Below are positions 1,021 through 45,688 of a stretch of 64,000 nucleotides of DNA, in pieces. Source of the stretch: Kiritimatiellia bacterium (GTDB taxonomy: Bacteria; Verrucomicrobiota; Kiritimatiellia; RFP12; UBA1067). Under the pieces are notes generated by a model. The model did no database searches, was not told where the DNA came from, and saw only the letters and a program-made list of their open reading frames with translations. A program made the translations under genes and the position numbers. The first letter of the stretch is position 1, and each line of letters starts with the position of its first letter. The stretch is taken from assembly GCA_028686345.1 (NCBI GenBank), contig JAQUCE010000003.1:1-64000 (forward strand), read 5' to 3'.

Positions 1021-1080
1021 GTATGTAGTTCACGCTTTAGCGTGTCTTCTGAACAGGGCGCGGCATAATAAGCGTTGCTG
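1021..1080. repeat. Half copy of the 121-bp miniature inverted-repeat element
   Basis: The segment begins GTATGTAGTTCACGCTTTAG and continues through GTGTCTTCTGAACA to a decayed end (GGCATAATAAGCGTTGCTG). It matches the right half of the intact element at 25868-25988 and the right arm of the copy at 44177-44309. No left arm is visible, so it is a truncated relic. Confidence 0.75.
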
Positions 1081-19280: not shown

Positions 19281-22200
19281 GTGTATCTAAAACAGCTCGA
19301 TATAAATGGATTTAAAAGCTTTGGCGAAAAAACCCGCCTGCATTTTGAGCCTGGCATGATCTCAATTGTCGGGCCGAACGGCTGTGGCAAAAGCAATGTT
19401 TCCGATGCAATCCGTTGGGTGCTGGGCGAACAGCGCCCCACCGCGCTGCGCTGCGCCCGTATGACCGATCTGATTTTCAACGGCACCGACACCCGGAAGC
19501 CGCTGGGCATGGCTGAGGTTGCCATCACCTTTACCAACTGCGAAGGGGTACTCGAGACCGAGTTCAATGAGGTCACCATCGCCCGACGGGTCTTCCGATC
19601 CGGCGAGGGCCAGTACTTTATCAACAAAAACCCCTGCCGCCTGAAGGATGTCCACCGCCTCTTCATGGGTACCGGCATTGGCACCACCTCCTACTCTGTC
19701 ATGGCGCAAGGCCAGATTGACGCCATTCTATCCTCGCGTCCCGAGGATCGGCGCGCGGTTTTTGAAGAGGCTGCAGGAATTACTAAATTCAAAGCCGACC
19801 GCAAGGAAGCGCTCCGCAAGATTGAGCACACGGATACCAATCTCACCCGCCTGGCGGATGTGATTCGCGAAGTCAAGCGCCAGATCAACACGTTGCAGCG
19901 TCAGGCCGGCAAAGCGCAGAAGTACAAGGCTCTGCGCGATCAGTTGCGCAGCTTCGATATCTTCCTGACAGGCCGCCGTCTGGCTGATCTGCAGGTGCGC
20001 ATCCGCGAGCTGGAGTGCTCCATCCACGAGCTGAGTGATCAAATTGCGGTCTACACCGACTTTGTCAGCGACTCGGAAGAGGAGTCAGGTCGTATCCACG
20101 GCGTGATCTCCGAGACCGAGGAGAAAATCGCTGATTTAACGGGAAAAGCCACCCGCGCCGACAACAACCACCTGCGGGCTCAGGAGGTGATCAGGGTCAA
20201 CCACCAGCGCATTGAGGAGTACAAAGCCTGGGCTGAACGTGACAACCAGGAGATCAGCGGCACACAGCACCAGATCGACCAGCTGACCATGCAGCTGGAG
20301 TCGTTGGAGCAGAAACGCACCCTCATCCAGAGCGCATCCGAGGACGAACAGCAGCAGCTGGCAGCAGCGCAACGCGCCTTCAACCAGCACGAAAAGCTGA
20401 TCACAGAGACCAGAGAGTCACTGCAAGCCATGCGGCAGGAGTCCGTTGCCTGCGAACGCAGCACCGCACAGGCCCAGAACCAACTCAGTGAGCTGGAAAC
20501 CAAGCAGCGTGAGCTGATCATGAAGCGCGAGCGTCTCACCTCTGAACAGCGGCAAGTGGATGAAAACCTCAAAAATTTTGAAAAAAACAGCATTGTCATT
20601 AAAGCAGACCTGGATCGGTTTGTCATTGAACGCGACACGGTCAGGGAGCGGCTGGAGCTATTGGAGGAGGAGCGCGAAATCACGGCGGCAGAGCTGAAAT
20701 CACTCCACTCCGAGCTGGCGCATCTGCAATCCGAGGTCGCCACCAAGCGAGCGCAGATTGAACTGTTGAGCGATAAAAAGGAGTCCTCCGGGGAGTATCC
20801 CGCAGGCTCATTGCAGCTGATGGACCCTGAAAATCCGCTCGCGGTTGACACCTCCGTTGTTCTGGGACCGCTGGCGGAAAAATTCAACGCACCCAAAGAG
20901 ATGCGTCTGGCGCTGGAAGCCGCGCTACGTGCCTGGCTGGACGCGATTATTGTACGCGATGCCGCCTCAGCCCGTACCATCATCGCCAAACTGCACGCTG
21001 CTGGCAGGCAGGCGGCAGCCCGTATAATCGCCGGCGAGTACGTTTGCGCAGTGAAGCCAGCTCCCGCACCGCAAGGTTTAACCCCGCTCCTGGAGCACAT
21101 CACAGTGGCCGTGGGATTTCAAGCTGCCGCTGAACGACTGCTGGGCAATATCTATCTAGCTGACTCGCCTGATGACATTCCTGAGACCATCCCCGCCGGC
21201 GTCAGCGTCGTAACCCGCGGGGGCTCTATTTTCCACGACAATGGAGCCATGGAACTATGGATGCCCGAAAGCCAGATTTCCAGTCCCCTGGCGCGCCGTA
21301 TGCTAATCTCCGACACCACTGAGCAACTGGCAAAAGTTAAAGAGGATTTATCGGCCCAACGCAACCGCCAGGAGCAGCTCAACGCCCGTAACAGCGAACT
21401 TTCGCTGCAAATTACCGGGATTCGGGCGGAGCTAACCGAGATCAGCCGCCAAGCAGCGCAGGCTGACGGCGAATACCAGTCAGCCTGTCGGGATGTTGCC
21501 CGCGCGCGCGCCAGGTTCGAGACCGTTAACCATGAGGTTGAGGGAATCCTCTCCGCGACCTCCGGTGATGATGAAACCCGCGAGGAGCTGCAGGATAAGT
21601 TGCGCGCGCTACTTGAAAAACGCAATCAGCTCCTGGAGCACACCACAGAAAAATCAGGCTCTTTAAACGAGCTGGAGAGTGTTTTCAGCAGGTTGAGCCA
21701 CAACTTAACTGAGTGCCGCATCACCCTCTCCAGCTCCACCCAGCAGTTGGAACACACACTCAGCCAGCTGACAAACATCCAAAACCACATAGAGGAGTTG
21801 AACCGCACCATCAGCGGCCGCAGCCAGGGTGTGAAATCGTATGAGGACAGCATTGGCCGTCTCAAAATCGAGATCAACACGCTTGAGACCAACCTTGAGC
21901 CAATGAAGATCGAAGCCGAGACCCTGCACGCACAGATCACTGAAACCCGCCGCGAACGCACAGCGCATCAGCGCACGCTGGAAAAAAATGATGCGACACT
22001 TGCCGAGCGCCGCCGAGCCCTTGACACTACCCGTGATAACAAGAACAAGGCCGAAGTGGAGATCACCGAAGCCAAGATGCGCCACCAGAACCATTTGGAT
22101 CATATCTATAATGAGTATGGTGTGAGCGAGCAAGAGCTGATCGCCCACCCCGAGCCGCTCTGGCCGGATGGTGCGCAGCCTCCGCTGCCAGAGATTGCAG

Positions 22201-22919
22201 CGCGCGTTGCCCAGCTTAACCGTGAAATTCAGGAGGTCGGTCCAGTCAATCTGGTGGCCATTGAAGAACACAAGGAGCATGAAGAGCGCTATGCCTTCCT
22301 CAAAGCGCAGGAAGAGGATCTGCTGCAATCCAAAGCGCAGATCCTAGGTTTGATCAGCACAATCAACACCAAATCCAGCGAGCTTTTCAAACAGACCTTC
22401 GAACAGGCCAACACCAACTTTCAGGAGATGTTCACCAAGCTCTTCAACGGAGGTGAGGCCCGGCTGGTAATGCTGGAAAACAAAGATGATCCGCTGGAGT
22501 GCGGTATTGACATCATTGCCCGCCCCCCCGGCAAACGCCCGCAATCAGTCACGCTGCTCTCCGGCGGCGAGCGTACCATGACTGCAGTGAGCCTGCTCTT
22601 TGCCATTTTTAAGATCAAACCCTCCCCCTTCTGTCTGCTGGATGAGCTGGATGCCGCGTTGGATGACAGCAATATCGGACGGTTTGTGATGGCACTCAAA
22701 GATTTCCTGACACACTCGCAATTCCTGATTATCACCCACAACCAACACACCATCGCCGCCTCAGACCTTGTCTATGGCGTGACGCATCAGGAGAAGGGTG
22801 TCTCCAAGGTCATCTCAATGCGCCTGAGCGAGATCGGCAACAAAGATCTCAACCTCAATCCCGATGCCCCAACCATCGCTGTTGAGAGCAACCTTCCAGC
22901 ACCAGCCCGTGCTAATTAG
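19281..22919 (+). CDS. smc: Chromosome segregation protein SMC
   Basis: This 1212-residue ATPase is the core of the SMC-ScpAB condensin, which compacts and separates chromosomes. The N-terminal head has FKSFGEKT, the Walker A motif GPNGCGKSN and MAQGQIDAILSSRPEDRR. Long coiled coils occupy roughly residues 170-515 and 665-1010, with a hinge near 525-650 (VVLGPLAEKFNAPKEMRLAL). The C-terminal head has the ABC signature LLSGGERTMTAVSLL near 1092 and Walker B FCLLDELDAALDD near 1117. The start is a GTG; the binding site (GGAAAC) is weak, but the N-terminus MYLKQLDINGFKSF fits the family exactly. No scpA or scpB gene is adjacent. The last 30 residues are a non-conserved tail. Confidence 0.97.
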   Translation: MYLKQLDINGFKSFGEKTRLHFEPGMISIVGPNGCGKSNVSDAIRWVLGEQRPTALRCARMTDLIFNGTDTRKPLGMAEVAITFTNCEGVLETEFNEVTIARRVFRSGEGQYFINKNPCRLKDVHRLFMGTGIGTTSYSVMAQGQIDAILSSRPEDRRAVFEEAAGITKFKADRKEALRKIEHTDTNLTRLADVIREVKRQINTLQRQAGKAQKYKALRDQLRSFDIFLTGRRLADLQVRIRELECSIHELSDQIAVYTDFVSDSEEESGRIHGVISETEEKIADLTGKATRADNNHLRAQEVIRVNHQRIEEYKAWAERDNQEISGTQHQIDQLTMQLESLEQKRTLIQSASEDEQQQLAAAQRAFNQHEKLITETRESLQAMRQESVACERSTAQAQNQLSELETKQRELIMKRERLTSEQRQVDENLKNFEKNSIVIKADLDRFVIERDTVRERLELLEEEREITAAELKSLHSELAHLQSEVATKRAQIELLSDKKESSGEYPAGSLQLMDPENPLAVDTSVVLGPLAEKFNAPKEMRLALEAALRAWLDAIIVRDAASARTIIAKLHAAGRQAAARIIAGEYVCAVKPAPAPQGLTPLLEHITVAVGFQAAAERLLGNIYLADSPDDIPETIPAGVSVVTRGGSIFHDNGAMELWMPESQISSPLARRMLISDTTEQLAKVKEDLSAQRNRQEQLNARNSELSLQITGIRAELTEISRQAAQADGEYQSACRDVARARARFETVNHEVEGILSATSGDDETREELQDKLRALLEKRNQLLEHTTEKSGSLNELESVFSRLSHNLTECRITLSSSTQQLEHTLSQLTNIQNHIEELNRTISGRSQGVKSYEDSIGRLKIEINTLETNLEPMKIEAETLHAQITETRRERTAHQRTLEKNDATLAERRRALDTTRDNKNKAEVEITEAKMRHQNHLDHIYNEYGVSEQELIAHPEPLWPDGAQPPLPEIAARVAQLNREIQEVGPVNLVAIEEHKEHEERYAFLKAQEEDLLQSKAQILGLISTINTKSSELFKQTFEQANTNFQEMFTKLFNGGEARLVMLENKDDPLECGIDIIARPPGKRPQSVTLLSGGERTMTAVSLLFAIFKIKPSPFCLLDELDAALDDSNIGRFVMALKDFLTHSQFLIITHNQHTIAASDLVYGVTHQEKGVSKVISMRLSEIGNKDLNLNPDAPTIAVESNLPAPARAN

Positions 22920-22980
22920 CGTCCATTGTAGTTAAAAAACTACACCGAACAACAACCCTTGCATGCTGCAGTGCAGCGCA

Positions 22981-23229
22981 GTCGCTCTACCAGCGACATC
23001 GGTGACGATATTGTGCGACGATGTTGGTGGACGATTGGGACCATGCGGGGCTCGTCCACCAGCATCGTCGCCGCCATCGTCAACCGCAGGCGCGGCTGAC
23101 CATATCTGCGTGCCTGCCCATTCGCGTGTCACCCGCAGTCGCCCGCATAGCGGACGACTTCCTTGCTTCGCGCCTTGATTTCCAACCGGACATGTCCGAT
23201 TGGAAATCGGAGCTACGTTGCTCCCGCAC
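22981..23229. repeat. Full composite palindromic repeat
   Basis: This is the longest copy of the mosaic repeat. In order it has GTCGCTCTACCAGCGACATC; an 18-bp inverted repeat (GACGATGTTGGTGGACGA at 23017-23034, exact inverted partner except one base at 23052-23069); CATCGTCAACCGCAGGCGCG; ATTCGCGTG with CCCGCATAGCGGACGACTTC; and TGTCCGATTGGAAATCGGAG with CTACGTTGCTCC. The copy at 54930-55096 keeps the same order without the inner hairpin. The rest of the 22920-23421 gap shows nothing else except the promoter below. Confidence 0.8.
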
Positions 23230-23333
23230 TAACGGCACCCATCTGGGTTTCTTCTCGCAGCAGCGGTTTTCTGTATTTTTTTAAAATTAACCGGATTTTG
23301 AGTGAATGGCAAATAAATCGAAAACGTCTAGCC

Positions 23334-23362
23334 TTGCTAACCGGAAAACATTGCGCTATTAT
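23334..23362 (+). promoter_or_regulatory. Putative sigma70-type promoter for the V-ATPase genes
   Basis: TTGCTA at 23334-23339 and TATTAT at 23357-23362 are separated by exactly 17 bases. They lie about 60 bases upstream of the subunit D start and downstream of the repeat block. Confidence 0.5.
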
Positions 23363-23421
23363 ATACCCTTATTTTCAAAACCAAAAGCTTGGGAGTGAAA
23401 GTCAAACAGAGATACGTAGCA

Positions 23422-24042
23422 ATGGCAAAAGTTAAACTTACAAAAACAGAGTTGAAAACTCAGAGTGACGCGCTCAAACGTTTTGAGCGGTTTCTGCCGA
23501 TGTTGCAGCTGAAAAAGCAGCAACTGCAGGCGGAGATCGCGGAGATTGCCACAAAGGCTGAACAGCTCGCCAAACGCCAGGCTGATTCCCAAAGAGTTCT
23601 CTCCGCCTGGGTTGAGCTGTTCGCCGGCGAGAGCGATCAACTCAACGAGCTGGTCACGCTGGAGCAGGTTTTGACTGACACCAGTAATATTGCAGGTGTT
23701 GCGATACCAATTTACACAGGTCTCAAGACAAAAGTCGCGGAGATCGATCTCTTTGCAACGCCGCCTTGGGTTGATGACGCGGTTAAAATGCTGATCACCA
23801 CGCTTGAGTTCAAAGCAGAGCAGGCAGTTCTTGAAAGACAACACCAGCTGATCACCGAGGAGCTAACAACAACATCACAACGCGTCAACCTCTTTGAAAA
23901 GGTGAAGATCCCGGAGTGCAAAGAGAATATCCGCGTTATCAAGATTGCGTTGGGCGATGAACAAACCGCGTCGGTGACACGCGGTAAGATCGCCAAAGGG
24001 CGCTGTCACACACCGGATGACGACGAGGAGAGTGCGGCATGA
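23422..24042 (+). CDS. ntpD: V-type ATP synthase subunit D
   Basis: The 206-residue product from ATG 23422 begins MAKVKLTKTELKTQSDALKR, the family's standard N-terminus; the upstream in-frame TTG at 23389 would add an atypical leader. Subunit D forms the central rotor shaft that couples ATP turnover in the A3B3 head to rotation of the membrane K ring. It is mostly alpha-helical, with the long N- and C-terminal helices expected of the shaft. The stop overlaps the subunit I start (ATGA), so the two are translationally coupled. The head subunits A and B, normally next door, are not in this window: smc and a repeat block precede D. Confidence 0.92.
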   Translation: MAKVKLTKTELKTQSDALKRFERFLPMLQLKKQQLQAEIAEIATKAEQLAKRQADSQRVLSAWVELFAGESDQLNELVTLEQVLTDTSNIAGVAIPIYTGLKTKVAEIDLFATPPWVDDAVKMLITTLEFKAEQAVLERQHQLITEELTTTSQRVNLFEKVKIPECKENIRVIKIALGDEQTASVTRGKIAKGRCHTPDDDEESAA

Positions 24043-25913
24043 TTGTTCCAATGAAACATCTTCTGATCCTCAGTGTAGCGGAAGAGAAGCTGCGTACGAT
24101 CGAGATCATCCGCGAACTCGGCGTGATGCACTTGAGTTATCAAGCCTCTGAAACCCCCGAGTTTCGGCAGGCGCGTCACGAATACAACGTGATTCAAAAC
24201 GCCCAATACATTCTCAAAAACCTGCACAAGCCGCTCATGCCAACCGCCTCTGCCGCGCATATGGCCCCTTTCATTTTCAACGACATATCCAAGTCAATTG
24301 CGCAGCCGCTGCCCACTGTGCGTGGGGACACCCACACGAAAATACGCGCTGTGATTGAGCTGGACGACCGCCGCCGCAAAATCTGCGACCAGCTCTTCAA
24401 ACTCCGTAAAGAGTGCGCTGCTTACAGACCATTCGGCGAGTTTGATATCTCGCTGCCCGATAAACTCGTTGCCAGCGGTGTGCCGGTGCGCATGTTCCGC
24501 CACTCCACACACCTCCAAGTCACGCCGGATAAGAAGCTCCCGATCAAAAACTTTGGCGTACACGATGATTTTGTTTATGGAGTTCTGTTTGGCGAGGGCA
24601 CGCTGCCGGAGGGGTGTGAAATCCTCCCCCCGCCGCCAGCCCCGCTTTCGGAGATGCAACTCCAGTGCGCCGAGGCACGGGCGCGGATTGCTTACATCTC
24701 CGAGAAGCTCGTGATCGCCGCTGAGAGGATCGATCTGCAACCCGAGATCAAACGGATGTATGATTTCTGCTGTTTTATCGCGGCGCATGACAGCATGAGC
24801 ACAAATGGCCAAGTTGTCTGGATCAGCGGTTGGATGCCTGCTGAGTGTGAAAAACAAGTTATGGCCGCCGCCCGCGAACATGCCTGGGGCATCCTCGTGC
24901 GTGATCCCCGCGACCACGAACTTGAGCAGGTGCCGACCCTGCTGCGCCCACCGCGCGGTTTCAAGGCCATGCACTCACTCTTCTCGGCCCTGGGCATCAA
25001 CCCGGCCTACAATGAATCGGATGTGAGTGTGCCCTTCTTCGCATTCTTCAGTATTTTCTTTGCCATGCTGGTGGGCGACGGTGGTTATGGCACTCTCATT
25101 CTGCTGATCACGCTCCTGGCAGCGCGCAAGATGAAAAAAGCTCCGCGTTCGCCATTCATCCTGCTGAGCGTGTTTTCCATTGCCACCATTATCTGGGGCG
25201 CACTTTCCAACACCTGGTTCGGGTTCCACCCGCTGATCACTGCCAACCCGGTCAGCGCGTGGTTCAGCGAACCTGGCAAAGGCGATGGCAATATGATGCT
25301 GCTCTGCTTTACACTGGGGGTGATCCACCTCTCGGTGGCGCGGCTGTGGAATGCCATCGCACTCTTTCCCAACACCAAGTCTTTAGCTGAGGTGGGCTGG
25401 ATCGGGGTGATCTGGTTCATGTTCTTCACAGCCGGCAGCGTGGTTGGAGTTCTACCTGCTCCGGGAGTTGCCATGCAAGCCATACTGGGACTCTCCATCC
25501 TGTTGATCCTGGGCTTTATGCTAAAACCCAAGGAGCTTAAAACCGAGGGCTCGGCACTGGGCATGCTGCCGCTCAACATCATCAGTTGCCTGGGGGACAT
25601 CATCTCCTACGTGCGGCTCTTCGCGGTGGGACTGGCCTCGGTCAGGGTGGCGGAAAACTTTAATGAAATGGCGATCGGACTTGACATGCCTTTAATCTTA
25701 AAGCTGCCCTGCATGATCATCATTCTGCTGCTGGGCCACGGCCTCAACCTGGCTATGGCCGGGCTCGGCATTCTGGTACACGCCGTACGCTTGAACACCC
25801 TGGAGTTTTCCAACCACAAGGGCATCACCTGGTCGGGCTTTGCTTTCACCCCGCTCAAGAGCAGCGCCAGCAATTCTAATTATGACCGCGCACCTGTTCA
25901 GAAAGCACGCTAA
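24039..25913 (+). CDS. ntpI: V-type ATP synthase subunit I
   Basis: The 624-residue stator subunit (subunit a homologue) has a cytoplasmic N-terminal half (MIVPMKHLLILSVAEEKLRT, then coiled coil). The membrane half starts near residue 325 (SVPFFAFFSIFFAMLVGDGG) and has about seven hydrophobic segments, including SYVRLFAVGLASVRVAENFN, which carries the conserved Arg that faces the K-ring carboxylates. It overlaps the subunit D stop by 4 bases. The conserved family sequence ends near GITWSGFAFTPLKSS. The last codons, about 15, lie inside a 121-bp miniature inverted-repeat element, which supplies an apparently foreign tail (NSNYDRAPVQKAR) and the stop. Since this tail follows the natural end, the protein is probably functional. 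Confidence 0.92.
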   Translation: MIVPMKHLLILSVAEEKLRTIEIIRELGVMHLSYQASETPEFRQARHEYNVIQNAQYILKNLHKPLMPTASAAHMAPFIFNDISKSIAQPLPTVRGDTHTKIRAVIELDDRRRKICDQLFKLRKECAAYRPFGEFDISLPDKLVASGVPVRMFRHSTHLQVTPDKKLPIKNFGVHDDFVYGVLFGEGTLPEGCEILPPPPAPLSEMQLQCAEARARIAYISEKLVIAAERIDLQPEIKRMYDFCCFIAAHDSMSTNGQVVWISGWMPAECEKQVMAAAREHAWGILVRDPRDHELEQVPTLLRPPRGFKAMHSLFSALGINPAYNESDVSVPFFAFFSIFFAMLVGDGGYGTLILLITLLAARKMKKAPRSPFILLSVFSIATIIWGALSNTWFGFHPLITANPVSAWFSEPGKGDGNMMLLCFTLGVIHLSVARLWNAIALFPNTKSLAEVGWIGVIWFMFFTAGSVVGVLPAPGVAMQAILGLSILLILGFMLKPKELKTEGSALGMLPLNIISCLGDIISYVRLFAVGLASVRVAENFNEMAIGLDMPLILKLPCMIIILLLGHGLNLAMAGLGILVHAVRLNTLEFSNHKGITWSGFAFTPLKSSASNSNYDRAPVQKAR

Positions 25914-25988
25914 AGCGTGAACTACATACGGTTTCCGGGGTATGTAGTTCACGCTTTAGCGTGTCTCCGGCCATAATTAGAATTGCTG
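25868..25988. mobile_element. 121-bp palindromic MITE with 9-bp target duplication
   Basis: The element begins CAGCAATTCTAATTATG and ends with the exact inverted copy, giving 17-bp perfect terminal repeats. Inner arms (CACGCTAAAGCGTGAACTACATAC type) are also inverted around a short loop, so the whole element can fold on itself. It is flanked by the 9-bp direct repeat GAGCAGCGC at 25859-25867 and 25989-25997, the footprint of transposition. It encodes nothing and must move with a transposase from elsewhere. Its left arm overlaps the 3' end of the subunit I gene. A diverged copy lies at 44177-44309 and a half copy at 1021-1080. Confidence 0.85.
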
Positions 25989-26006
25989 GAGCAGCGCTGA
26001 AGTGCA

Positions 26007-26035
26007 TTGATGGTTAACATCAAAGATGATATACT
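26007..26035 (+). promoter_or_regulatory. Putative sigma70-type promoter for subunit K
   Basis: TTGATG at 26007-26012 and TATACT at 26030-26035 have a 17-base spacer. They lie between the miniature element and the subunit K gene, about 47 bases before its start. Confidence 0.5.
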
Positions 26036-26081
26036 TTTTAATTTACGTAAAAACTTGAAAAACAAATAAGGAGATACAATA

Positions 26082-26537
26082 ATGAGTCCAGAGTTATCAC
26101 AAGCCATGGGTGTTGCCGGTGCAGTCGCCTGTCTTTCGCTGAGCGCAATCGGCTCAGTTTTCGGAACAGGAGCAGCCGCGGCTTCGGCAGTGGGAGCGTG
26201 GAAAAAGTGCTACGCGCAGAACAAGGCCGCCCCTTTCCTGCTACTCTCGTTTGTGGGTGCGCCCATCACACAGACACTCTATGGCATGATTTTAATGTTT
26301 ACCATGTTCGAAAAAGCCGCCGCCGGTCCGGTGATGCTAATCATCGGGAGCTTCGCTGGTCTGGCTATCGGCCTTTCAGCGCTCTTCCAGGGACGTGCCG
26401 GCGCAGTCGCCTGCGATGCGCAGGCTGAGACTGGACAAGGGCTCACCAACTACCTGGCAGCCTTGGGCATTGTCGAGACAACCGCGATTTTCACCATGGT
26501 ATTCACATTGATCGCCGTTGGCAAGATCGGGGGTTAA
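26082..26537 (+). CDS. ntpK: V-type ATP synthase subunit K (proteolipid ring)
   Basis: The 151-residue protein forms the rotating membrane ring. It has four hydrophobic helices in two hairpins, the duplicated form typical of V-type K subunits. The ion-site residues resemble those of the sodium-binding Enterococcus hirae NtpK: Thr63-Gln64 (PITQTLYG) in helix 2, Gln103 (FQGR) in helix 3 and Glu132 (VETTAIF) in helix 4, corresponding to Thr64, Gln65, Gln110 and Glu139 there. This suggests, but does not prove, Na+ rather than H+ coupling. AAGGAG precedes the ATG at normal spacing. The gene lies 168 bases after subunit I, the gap being filled by the miniature element and a likely promoter. Confidence 0.93.
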   Translation: MSPELSQAMGVAGAVACLSLSAIGSVFGTGAAAASAVGAWKKCYAQNKAAPFLLLSFVGAPITQTLYGMILMFTMFEKAAAGPVMLIIGSFAGLAIGLSALFQGRAGAVACDAQAETGQGLTNYLAALGIVETTAIFTMVFTLIAVGKIGG

Positions 26538-44176: not shown

Positions 44177-44309
44177 CAACAACTCTCAGTATGGCTGTGC
44201 TCTGTTTGGAAGACACGCTAAAGCGTGAACTACATACCTCGAAAACCGTATGTAGTTCACGCTTTAGCGTGTCTTCTGAACATGTGGGCGGTCATAATTA
44301 GAATTGCTG
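44177..44309. mobile_element. Diverged copy of the miniature inverted-repeat element
   Basis: The right end CATAATTAGAATTGCTG (44293-44309) is identical to that of the 25868-25988 element, and the two inner arms (CACGCTAAAGCGTGAACTAC and its inverse) are intact. The left end has drifted (CAACAACTCTCAGTATGG). No target duplication is recognisable. A GCAAGC-ATCTT-GCTTGC hairpin adjoins the left end. Confidence 0.75.
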
Positions 44310-44356: not shown

Positions 44357-44515
44357 ATTTCCTTTTACAGCACGGACTGTCGAGTGACAGCACCGTGTGG
44401 AAGCGAAGACGTTCTGAGGATCCATGACTTCAGACGCCAAAGCGGATTAACTTGCAGGGTTTACTAAACCGTCTTTTCCGGGCGGAACTCTGTTTTAATG
44501 TTAAAGGATAATATC

Positions 44516-45688
44516 ATGCAATTACCTGTTTCGGAACTCACCGGAATCACTCTCAAAGACCTGATTGACGCTGGTCTTCATTTTGGACATCAGACCAAAC
44601 GCTGGAATCCCAAAATGCGCGACTATATCTTTGATAAGCGCAACGGAATCCACATCATCGACCTCACGCAGACCATCCCTATGATTGAGGAAGCAGCCAG
44701 GTTTCTGCGCGAGACTGTGTTGAGCGGAAAAAAAATTCTATTTATAGCAACCAAGAAACAAGCGCAGGAGGCTGTTAAAGAGGCCGCCGAGTTCTGCGGA
44801 CAGTACCACATGGCTGAGCGCTGGTTGGGCGGCACGCTGACCAACAATCAAACAATCCGCATCAGCGTCAAGCGCATGCGTCAAATCGAAGCCATGGGAC
44901 GCAACAACAACGGCGTGCTTTCAGTTCACAAAAAGGAGGCTGCCAGCCTGCGCCGCGAACTTGAAAAACTTCAGAAAAATCTGGGCGGCATCGCTGATAT
45001 GACCAAAATGCCTGGCGCCATCATCATTATTGATATCTGCCGCGAACAGAATGCACTCAAAGAGGCGAAGCGCCTGAATATTCCTGTGGTGGCGCTGGTT
45101 GACACCAATGCAGACCCTGATCCGATTGATTATGTTATTCCCGGCAACGACGATGCAATCCGCGGCATCAAACTGGTGGCCGACGCATTCGCTAAGGTGA
45201 TCAAAGCCGCAAACGATGAATACTCGCAGATCGCGGCTGAGCGCCAGCTCCAAAAAGATGTTGAACGCGCCAAAGAAGAGGCCACCAACCGCGCCGCACG
45301 CAAAACACGCAAAGACGACACCCGCTCTGCAGACAAGAGTGATGAAGCTAAAGCCAAGCTCAACGAGAGCCGCAAACGCGCCGCAAAAGCCGCTAAAGAG
45401 GCTGTTGAGGCTAAAGTAGCATCAGTTGAGCCTGCGCCGATTGCACAGGCTGTAGCCGCCACTGCGGAGCCTGTCGAAGCGCCCGAAGTTGAAACAGCTG
45501 TCGAAGCACCCAAAGCCAAAGCTGAGAAAGCTCCAAAGACCAAGGTTGAGGCGCCTGCCGAAGAGCCCAAGGCTGAGACGCCTGCCGAAGAGCCCAAGGT
45601 TGAGACGCCTGCTGAAGAGCCCAAGGTTGAGACGCCTGCTGAAGAGCCCAAGGCTGAGACGCCTGCTGAAGAGCCCAAGGCCGAATAA
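44516..45688 (+). CDS. rpsB: 30S ribosomal protein S2 with long C-terminal extension
   Basis: S2 binds the 30S subunit between head and body with S1. The start is ATG 44516 (MQLPVSELTGITLKDLIDAG) because AAAGGA lies upstream; an in-frame ATG at 44498 precedes that site. The core shows LHFGHQTKRWNPKM, LFIATKKQAQEAV, RWLGGTLTNNQTI and PVVALVDTNADPDPIDYVIP. The core ends near residue 235. A further 155 residues follow: a charged Lys/Ala-rich helix, then five repeats of PAEEPKAET/PAEEPKVET encoded by 27-bp units at 45554-45688. Extensions occur in some bacteria but are rarely so repetitive. It forms an operon with tsf. Confidence 0.96.
   Translation: MQLPVSELTGITLKDLIDAGLHFGHQTKRWNPKMRDYIFDKRNGIHIIDLTQTIPMIEEAARFLRETVLSGKKILFIATKKQAQEAVKEAAEFCGQYHMAERWLGGTLTNNQTIRISVKRMRQIEAMGRNNNGVLSVHKKEAASLRRELEKLQKNLGGIADMTKMPGAIIIIDICREQNALKEAKRLNIPVVALVDTNADPDPIDYVIPGNDDAIRGIKLVADAFAKVIKAANDEYSQIAAERQLQKDVERAKEEATNRAARKTRKDDTRSADKSDEAKAKLNESRKRAAKAAKEAVEAKVASVEPAPIAQAVAATAEPVEAPEVETAVEAPKAKAEKAPKTKVEAPAEEPKAETPAEEPKVETPAEEPKVETPAEEPKAETPAEEPKAE

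What the first reader, a model, noticed from the sequence alone, without database searches (positions are those of the whole stretch)
25859..25997. Miniature element with 9-bp target duplication supplies the end of a V-ATPase gene
The 121-bp element has 17-bp perfect terminal repeats, a fully palindromic body and a 9-bp direct repeat (GAGCAGCGC) on both sides. Its left arm now encodes the last residues and stop of subunit I. A sigma70-like promoter for subunit K lies just after it. The insertion therefore likely separated I from K in the operon, with K keeping or gaining its own promoter.
Basis: partly seen in the sequence, partly recalled or inferred. Interest (0 to 1): 0.65.

Follow-up and report, generated by a model that had tools for sequence, protein, structure and literature searches.

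The report
MITE insertion extending a V-ATPase gene
A 121-base non-autonomous "hitch-hiker" transposon, one of some 50 in this genome and belonging to an insertion-sequence type found in many bacterial phyla, landed a few codons before the end of a V-ATPase gene and replaced its last 3 amino acids with 14 new ones; this is a clear but mostly ordinary case of a mobile element reshaping a gene end.

Summary
Window 25868-25988 is a 121-bp element with perfect 17-bp terminal inverted repeats (TIRs), a 24-bp perfect inner stem and a 9-bp duplication (GAGCAGCGC). The genome holds about 50 copies. Of 36 paired copies, 18 keep a 9-bp duplication with at most 1 mismatch; cross-paired flanks give none. 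The element is absent from two same-genus genomes. It is a MITE.

The likely mover was found in other genomes: intact 1.9-2.1 kb insertion sequences with nearly the same TIR, perfect 9-bp duplications and an ISNCY/IS4-like DDE transposase. Three are in the same family or order. None was found in this genome's assembly (about 90% complete).

Removing the insert restores subunit I ending ...TPLKSSAEVH*, as relatives end. The element replaces EVH with SNSNYDRAPVQKAR. The I-K gap went from 71 to 168 nt, within the range of relatives, so "separated I from K" is overstated. The promoter-like site lies outside the element, in older host DNA.

Side result: the same TIR bounds 19 sequence-unrelated bodies in several phyla; 13 are strong hairpins (control 1 of 32), some resembling local REP-type palindromes. 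Only this part goes beyond a routine MITE.

The parts
25868..25988 (+). 121-bp MITE
   Evidence: Perfect TIRs, TSD, about 50 copies in the genome
25868..25884 (+). left TIR CAGCAATTCTAATTATG
   Evidence: same TIR on intact IS elements in other genomes
25972..25988 (-). right TIR (reverse complement of the left)
25906..25929 (+). left arm of the 24-bp perfect inner stem
   Evidence: (I2)
25940..25963 (+). right arm of the inner stem
   Evidence: (I2)
25859..25867 (+). left copy of the target duplication GAGCAGCGC
25989..25997 (+). right copy of the target duplication GAGCAGCGC
24039..25913 (+). V-type ATPase subunit I, 624 aa, C-terminus altered by the insertion
   Evidence: NF004429 E=7e-96; homologues in 55 of 60 genomes searched
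25869..25913 (+). 14 codons (SNSNYDRAPVQKAR) and stop TAA supplied by the element
25998..26010 (+). stranded old end of subunit I (completing ...AEVH and stop TGA 26008-26010)
   Evidence: Empty-site reading with one TSD copy kept
26007..26035 (+). sigma70-like promoter candidate TTGATG-17-TATACT; outside the element, function unproven
   Evidence: no counterpart of similar strength upstream of K in G001 or G002
26082..26537 (+). V-type ATPase subunit K, 151 aa
   Evidence: NF005174 above cut-off; PF00137
23389..24042 (+). V-type ATPase subunit D, overlapping the start of I by 4 nt
   Evidence: NF002565 above cut-off
44177..44309 (-). second, decayed copy of the same MITE (one TIR perfect, the other with 4 mismatches, no TSD), upstream of rpsB
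1021..1080 (-). half copy of the same MITE (TIR with 3 mismatches, one stem arm)

Best explanation
The element is a bacterial MITE moved in trans by a DDE transposase of an ISNCY/IS4-like insertion sequence that recognises CAGCAATTCTNATTNTG ends and makes 9-bp staggered cuts. It inserted recently, close to the stop codon of subunit I. Translation now runs into the left TIR and ends in the left stem arm, so the protein lost EVH and gained SNSNYDRAPVQKAR. The change touches only the variable tail after the conserved ...PFK/R block, so I infer that it is near-neutral. Subunit K keeps its own ribosome-binding site outside the hairpin, so co-transcription of I and K probably continues, with a large hairpin between the two reading frames. 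Shown: element, copies, duplications, empty-site reading, relatives' ends, IS partners elsewhere. Inferred: mobilisation in trans, neutrality, continued co-transcription.
For: Copies: TIR 61 forward and 58 reverse hits at up to 3 mismatches, backward control 1 and 5; 40 aligned copies at 86-100% identity; stem arm 56 and 55 hits. Duplication: of 36 paired copies, 12 exact and 6 with one mismatch at 9 bp; no cross-paired control has 2 or fewer mismatches; exact matches peak at 9 bp only. No match in 59 relatives' genomes, two of the same genus. Partner ISs: L288 2018 bp (TSD TATATTAGG), L289 2029 bp (GACAAGGAG) and L290 2110 bp (ACATACAGC) in genomes of the same family or order, with 1-2 TIR mismatches; L302 Calothrix plasmid 1865 bp; L224 1808 bp (CTATGACAC). 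Transposase alignment with invariant ALDGT (D132), GDxLx (D221) and R-x3-E (E345) motifs. Relatives' subunit I ends 0-17 residues after ...P[FL][KR]. Empty site gives 613 aa ending SSAEVH. K Shine-Dalgarno (AAGGAG) lies outside the hairpin.
Against: No transposase of this type was found in the window's own assembly, so the mover is inferred from relatives; the assembly is about 90% complete in 218 contigs and such repeats often break contigs. No strain with the exact empty site was available. Half of the paired copies no longer show a duplication, which I read as decay or recombination. No transcript data.
Confidence: 0.93

Rival explanations
1. The insertion broke the D-I-K operon and K is now expressed from its own promoter, kept or gained.
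For: Promoter-like site at 26007-26035 with 17-nt spacing and TG before the second hexamer, and another overlapping the K start at 26055-26083.
Against: Present gap of 168 nt is matched by 167 nt in G001, which lacks the element. No intrinsic terminator was found in the element: the hairpin has no T-run. Candidate promoters lie in older DNA outside the element, and weak matches are common in such AT-rich stretches. No comparable site in G001 or G002.
Confidence: 0.15
2. The hairpin is a domesticated regulatory RNA element (attenuator or RNase III site) tuning K against I in the V-ATPase operon.
For: Very stable RNA fold of the intergenic transcript, z = -8.4; the stop codon of I lies within the stem.
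Against: Found only here among relatives' I-K junctions; copies are scattered over the genome; recent insertion by perfect TIR, TSD and near-consensus body; no Rfam family.
Confidence: 0.05
3. It is a REP/BIME-type extragenic palindrome spread by a RAYT-like enzyme rather than a TIR-recognising transposase.
For: Palindromic body, many copies, mostly intergenic.
Against: 9-bp target duplications and 17-bp conserved termini shared with DDE-transposase ISs; to my knowledge REPs carry neither.
Confidence: 0.02

Closest known systems
ISNCY-annotated insertion sequences with an IS4-like DDE transposase (e.g. Gloeothece verrucosa WP_013335080.1 'ISNCY family transposase')
   Same: TIR differs by 1-3 of 17 bases; 9-bp target duplication; DDE transposase; intact members in the same family and order
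   Different: The element here has no gene and its body shares no visible sequence with the ISs beyond the TIR; no transposase copy in its own assembly
Bacterial MITEs in general, e.g. [quoted passage not shown] PMC10969869)
   Same: Size, TIRs, duplications, hairpin fold, many copies, position at a gene end
   Different: Different TIR; this family's TIR is shared across phyla with unrelated bodies
Rickettsia palindromic elements (RPE)
   Same: Short palindromic element adding residues to a protein by reading through it (PMC10969869)
   Different: RPEs lie in frame inside many genes; here most copies are intergenic and the case is a replaced C-terminus; no sequence comparison made
GTAG-tagged REP palindromes (PMC3733652)
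   Same: In two deltaproteobacterial genomes (G097, G098) the same TIR shell encloses GTAGGTTGGGTTGAG hairpins that also occur free
   Different: The window element has a different core; the match to the published REP class is by tag and hairpin shape only

Membership tests
MITE (bacterial) | short, no coding capacity for a transposase | tested here: met
   121 bp
MITE (bacterial) | terminal inverted repeats | tested here: met
   17 of 17
MITE (bacterial) | target-site duplication of constant length at many copies | tested here: met
   9 bp; 18 of 36 with at most 1 mismatch, control none
MITE (bacterial) | multiple near-identical copies in the genome | tested here: met
MITE (bacterial) | autonomous partner with the same TIR | tested here: met
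   In relatives L288, L289, L290 and others; not in the own assembly
MITE (bacterial) | observed transposition | not testable with these tools
   Needs an experiment or strain comparison
ISNCY/IS4-like insertion sequence (partner) | DDE transposase motifs | tested here: met
   Invariant D132, D221, E345 in 6 homologues; weak DDE_Tnp_1 match below its cut-off
ISNCY/IS4-like insertion sequence (partner) | assignment to a named ISfinder group such as ISDol1 or ISAs1 | not tested
   ISfinder not available; no NCBIfam model above its cut-off; weak PF13808 match on one piece
REP/BIME | no target duplication, no TIR-type transposon ends | tested here: not met
   9-bp duplications and TIRs present
Rfam RNA family | match to a curated covariance model | tested here: not met
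   No match up to E = 1

The most novel reading that the evidence does not exclude
One insertion-sequence type provides a cross-phylum 17-bp 'shell' (CAGCAATTCTAATTATG, 9-bp duplication) into which unrelated hairpins, some of them local REP-type palindromes, have been captured again and again, the hairpin itself favouring spread, so that shells with hairpin cores outnumber the gene-bearing element by far.
Probability: 0.3. Interest if true: 0.55.

Novelty: new member of a known kind. Interest (0 to 1): 0.32.

Why it matters
It is a clean example of a mobile element replacing the end of a membrane ATPase gene, with the old end still readable beside it. The wider point is that a TIR shared between this order and genomes labelled Desulfobacterota, Chloroflexota, Gammaproteobacteria and Cyanobacteria allows MITE families to be tied to one transposase type, and makes it testable whether hairpin bodies are selected for mobility.

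Tried and rejected
An autonomous element among lone TIRs of the own genome: lone TIRs continue into MITE sequence or unrelated DNA. PF01609 search in ten genomes: none of the 30 loci had paired TIRs. TIR scan of viral contigs: 7 single hits, no pair. Gene-end supply as a general habit: only 6 of 36 copies end an ORF of at least 80 codons, 5 of them without a Pfam match; one long ORF in L051 reads through the element but its first Pfam domain starts later, so the element is probably upstream of the true start. Origin of the body by internal deletion of the IS: IS subterminal sequences do not resemble the MITE body. Solved structures for the transposase profile: none. Papers holding the TIR letters: none in the library.

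Full report
Check of the observation. The element lies at window 25868-25988 and is 121 bp long. Its ends are perfect 17-bp inverted repeats, CAGCAATTCTAATTATG, and GAGCAGCGC stands on both sides. A 24-bp perfect inner stem with a 10-nt loop makes up the centre. As single-stranded DNA it folds far better than shuffles, z = -12.1. 'Fully palindromic' is too strong: 21 nt on the left and 8 nt on the right between TIR and stem do not match.

Copies in the genome. The genome (5.3 Mb, 218 contigs, about 90% complete) has 61 forward and 58 reverse TIR hits at up to 3 mismatches against 1 and 5 for the backward control. Forty copies were aligned at 86-100% identity, and the stem arm is found 56 and 55 times. 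I fetched the copies with flanks. Of 36 paired copies, 12 have an exact 9-bp duplication and 6 more have one mismatch. No other exact length stands out, and none of the cross-paired controls had two or fewer mismatches. Sixty genomes including two others of the same genus were searched and only the own genome has the element. The window copy has perfect TIRs and TSD and a near-consensus body, so I take it to be recent.

What moves it. The 17-bp TIR is not private to this genome. It occurs in 24 of 95 genomes searched in the same family and order, in several of them in dozens of copies, while the backward control is almost silent. Nearly all paired TIRs are short, 84-350 bp. One exception was 1808 bp long with a perfect duplication and a broken transposase gene (L224). 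Using it as a query I found intact relatives: L288, L289 and L290, 2018-2110 bp, in two genomes of the same family and one of the same order, all with 1-2 TIR mismatches per end and perfect 9-bp duplications. A Calothrix plasmid copy shows the same with 2-3 mismatches, and a Gloeothece homologue annotated 'ISNCY family transposase' has the same ends without a duplication. The aligned transposases share the DDE residues D132, D221 and E345 with an IS4-like R-x3-E-x7-K context. The own assembly has no such gene; G040 of the same order keeps a fragment near a TIR. So a transposase of this type most likely moved the MITE in trans, from a copy lost or unassembled. That step is inferred.

Effect on the V-ATPase genes. 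D (23389-24042), I (24039-25913) and K (26082-26537) are V-type ATPase subunits by NCBIfam and Pfam. Keeping one copy of the duplication, the empty site reads ...FTPLKSSAEVH* with a TGA at 26008-26010, 613 aa, and a gap of 71 nt to K. Now the protein has 624 aa, ends ...SSASNSNYDRAPVQKAR*, stops in the left stem arm, and the gap is 168 nt. In relatives subunit I ends 0-17 residues after the conserved ...P[FL][KR], with variable tails. The change therefore falls in a tolerant stretch. Gaps in relatives without the element are mostly 1-83 nt but reach 167 nt in G001, and in two genomes other DNA has entered the junction. The insertion did lengthen the gap, but there is no sign that it split the operon. 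The element has no terminator-type T-run, and the Shine-Dalgarno of K is outside the hairpin. The promoter-like site at 26007-26035 is outside the element and overlaps the old stop codon. It is one of five such matches in 901 bp where 0.6 is expected, and no comparable site exists upstream of K in G001 or G002. It could be real, but if so it predates the insertion.

Is gene-end supply common? Six of 36 copies end an ORF of at least 80 codons; apart from subunit I none has a Pfam match, though L042:4287-5042 looks like an RHS/YD-repeat tail by eye. Most copies are intergenic.

A side result of more interest. Taking TIR pairs with a 9-bp duplication of at most one mismatch from all fetched loci, 58 elements fall into 19 groups by body sequence. 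Of these, 13 have bodies that fold with z below -3, against 1 of 32 flanking controls. In two deltaproteobacterial genomes the body hairpin GTAGGTTGGGTTGAG occurs both inside the TIR shell and free of it, like the GTAG-tagged REPs described in PMC3733652. In the window's genome the core is mostly bound to intact or decayed TIRs, with some chimeras to a second palindromic repeat family that shares half of the core. This suggests a shared transposon shell with exchangeable hairpin cores. The sample is small, taken from an incomplete scan, and hairpins may simply be what survives in intergenic DNA, so I hold this at about 0.3.

Taxonomy. A PVC, perhaps Kiritimatiellota, origin is my inference only.

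Noticed in passing
window 44177-44309: Decayed second copy of the MITE, in the upstream region of rpsB (44498-45688).
   Followed up: partly
L049:4885-5030, L054:5210-5370, L091:4885-5040, L384 and other own-genome loci: A second palindromic repeat family with ends like GTAACTTCTCAATAACC and cores such as CACGCTAAAGCGTGAACAACAAAC; chimeras with the first family exist (L049, L096, L097, L382).
   Followed up: partly
L106:8740-9061 (G049): A copy of the TIR family apparently interrupted by another element with ends GAGCCTGTCCGAAAAGG / CCTTTTCGGACAGGCTC.
   Followed up: no
L309 (G004, I-K junction): The 782-nt I-K gap holds two small ORFs that look by eye like a nucleotidyltransferase/HEPN pair inserted in the V-ATPase operon.
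   Followed up: no
L102-L141 (G040, G042, G045, G049): MITE bodies built of imperfect hexamer runs such as CGATACCGATACCGACCCCGA on the same TIR shell.
   Followed up: partly
window 19281-23388: D-I-K stands directly downstream of an SMC-like ORF; no V-ATPase A, B or E gene was seen among the ORFs scanned in the window.
   Followed up: no
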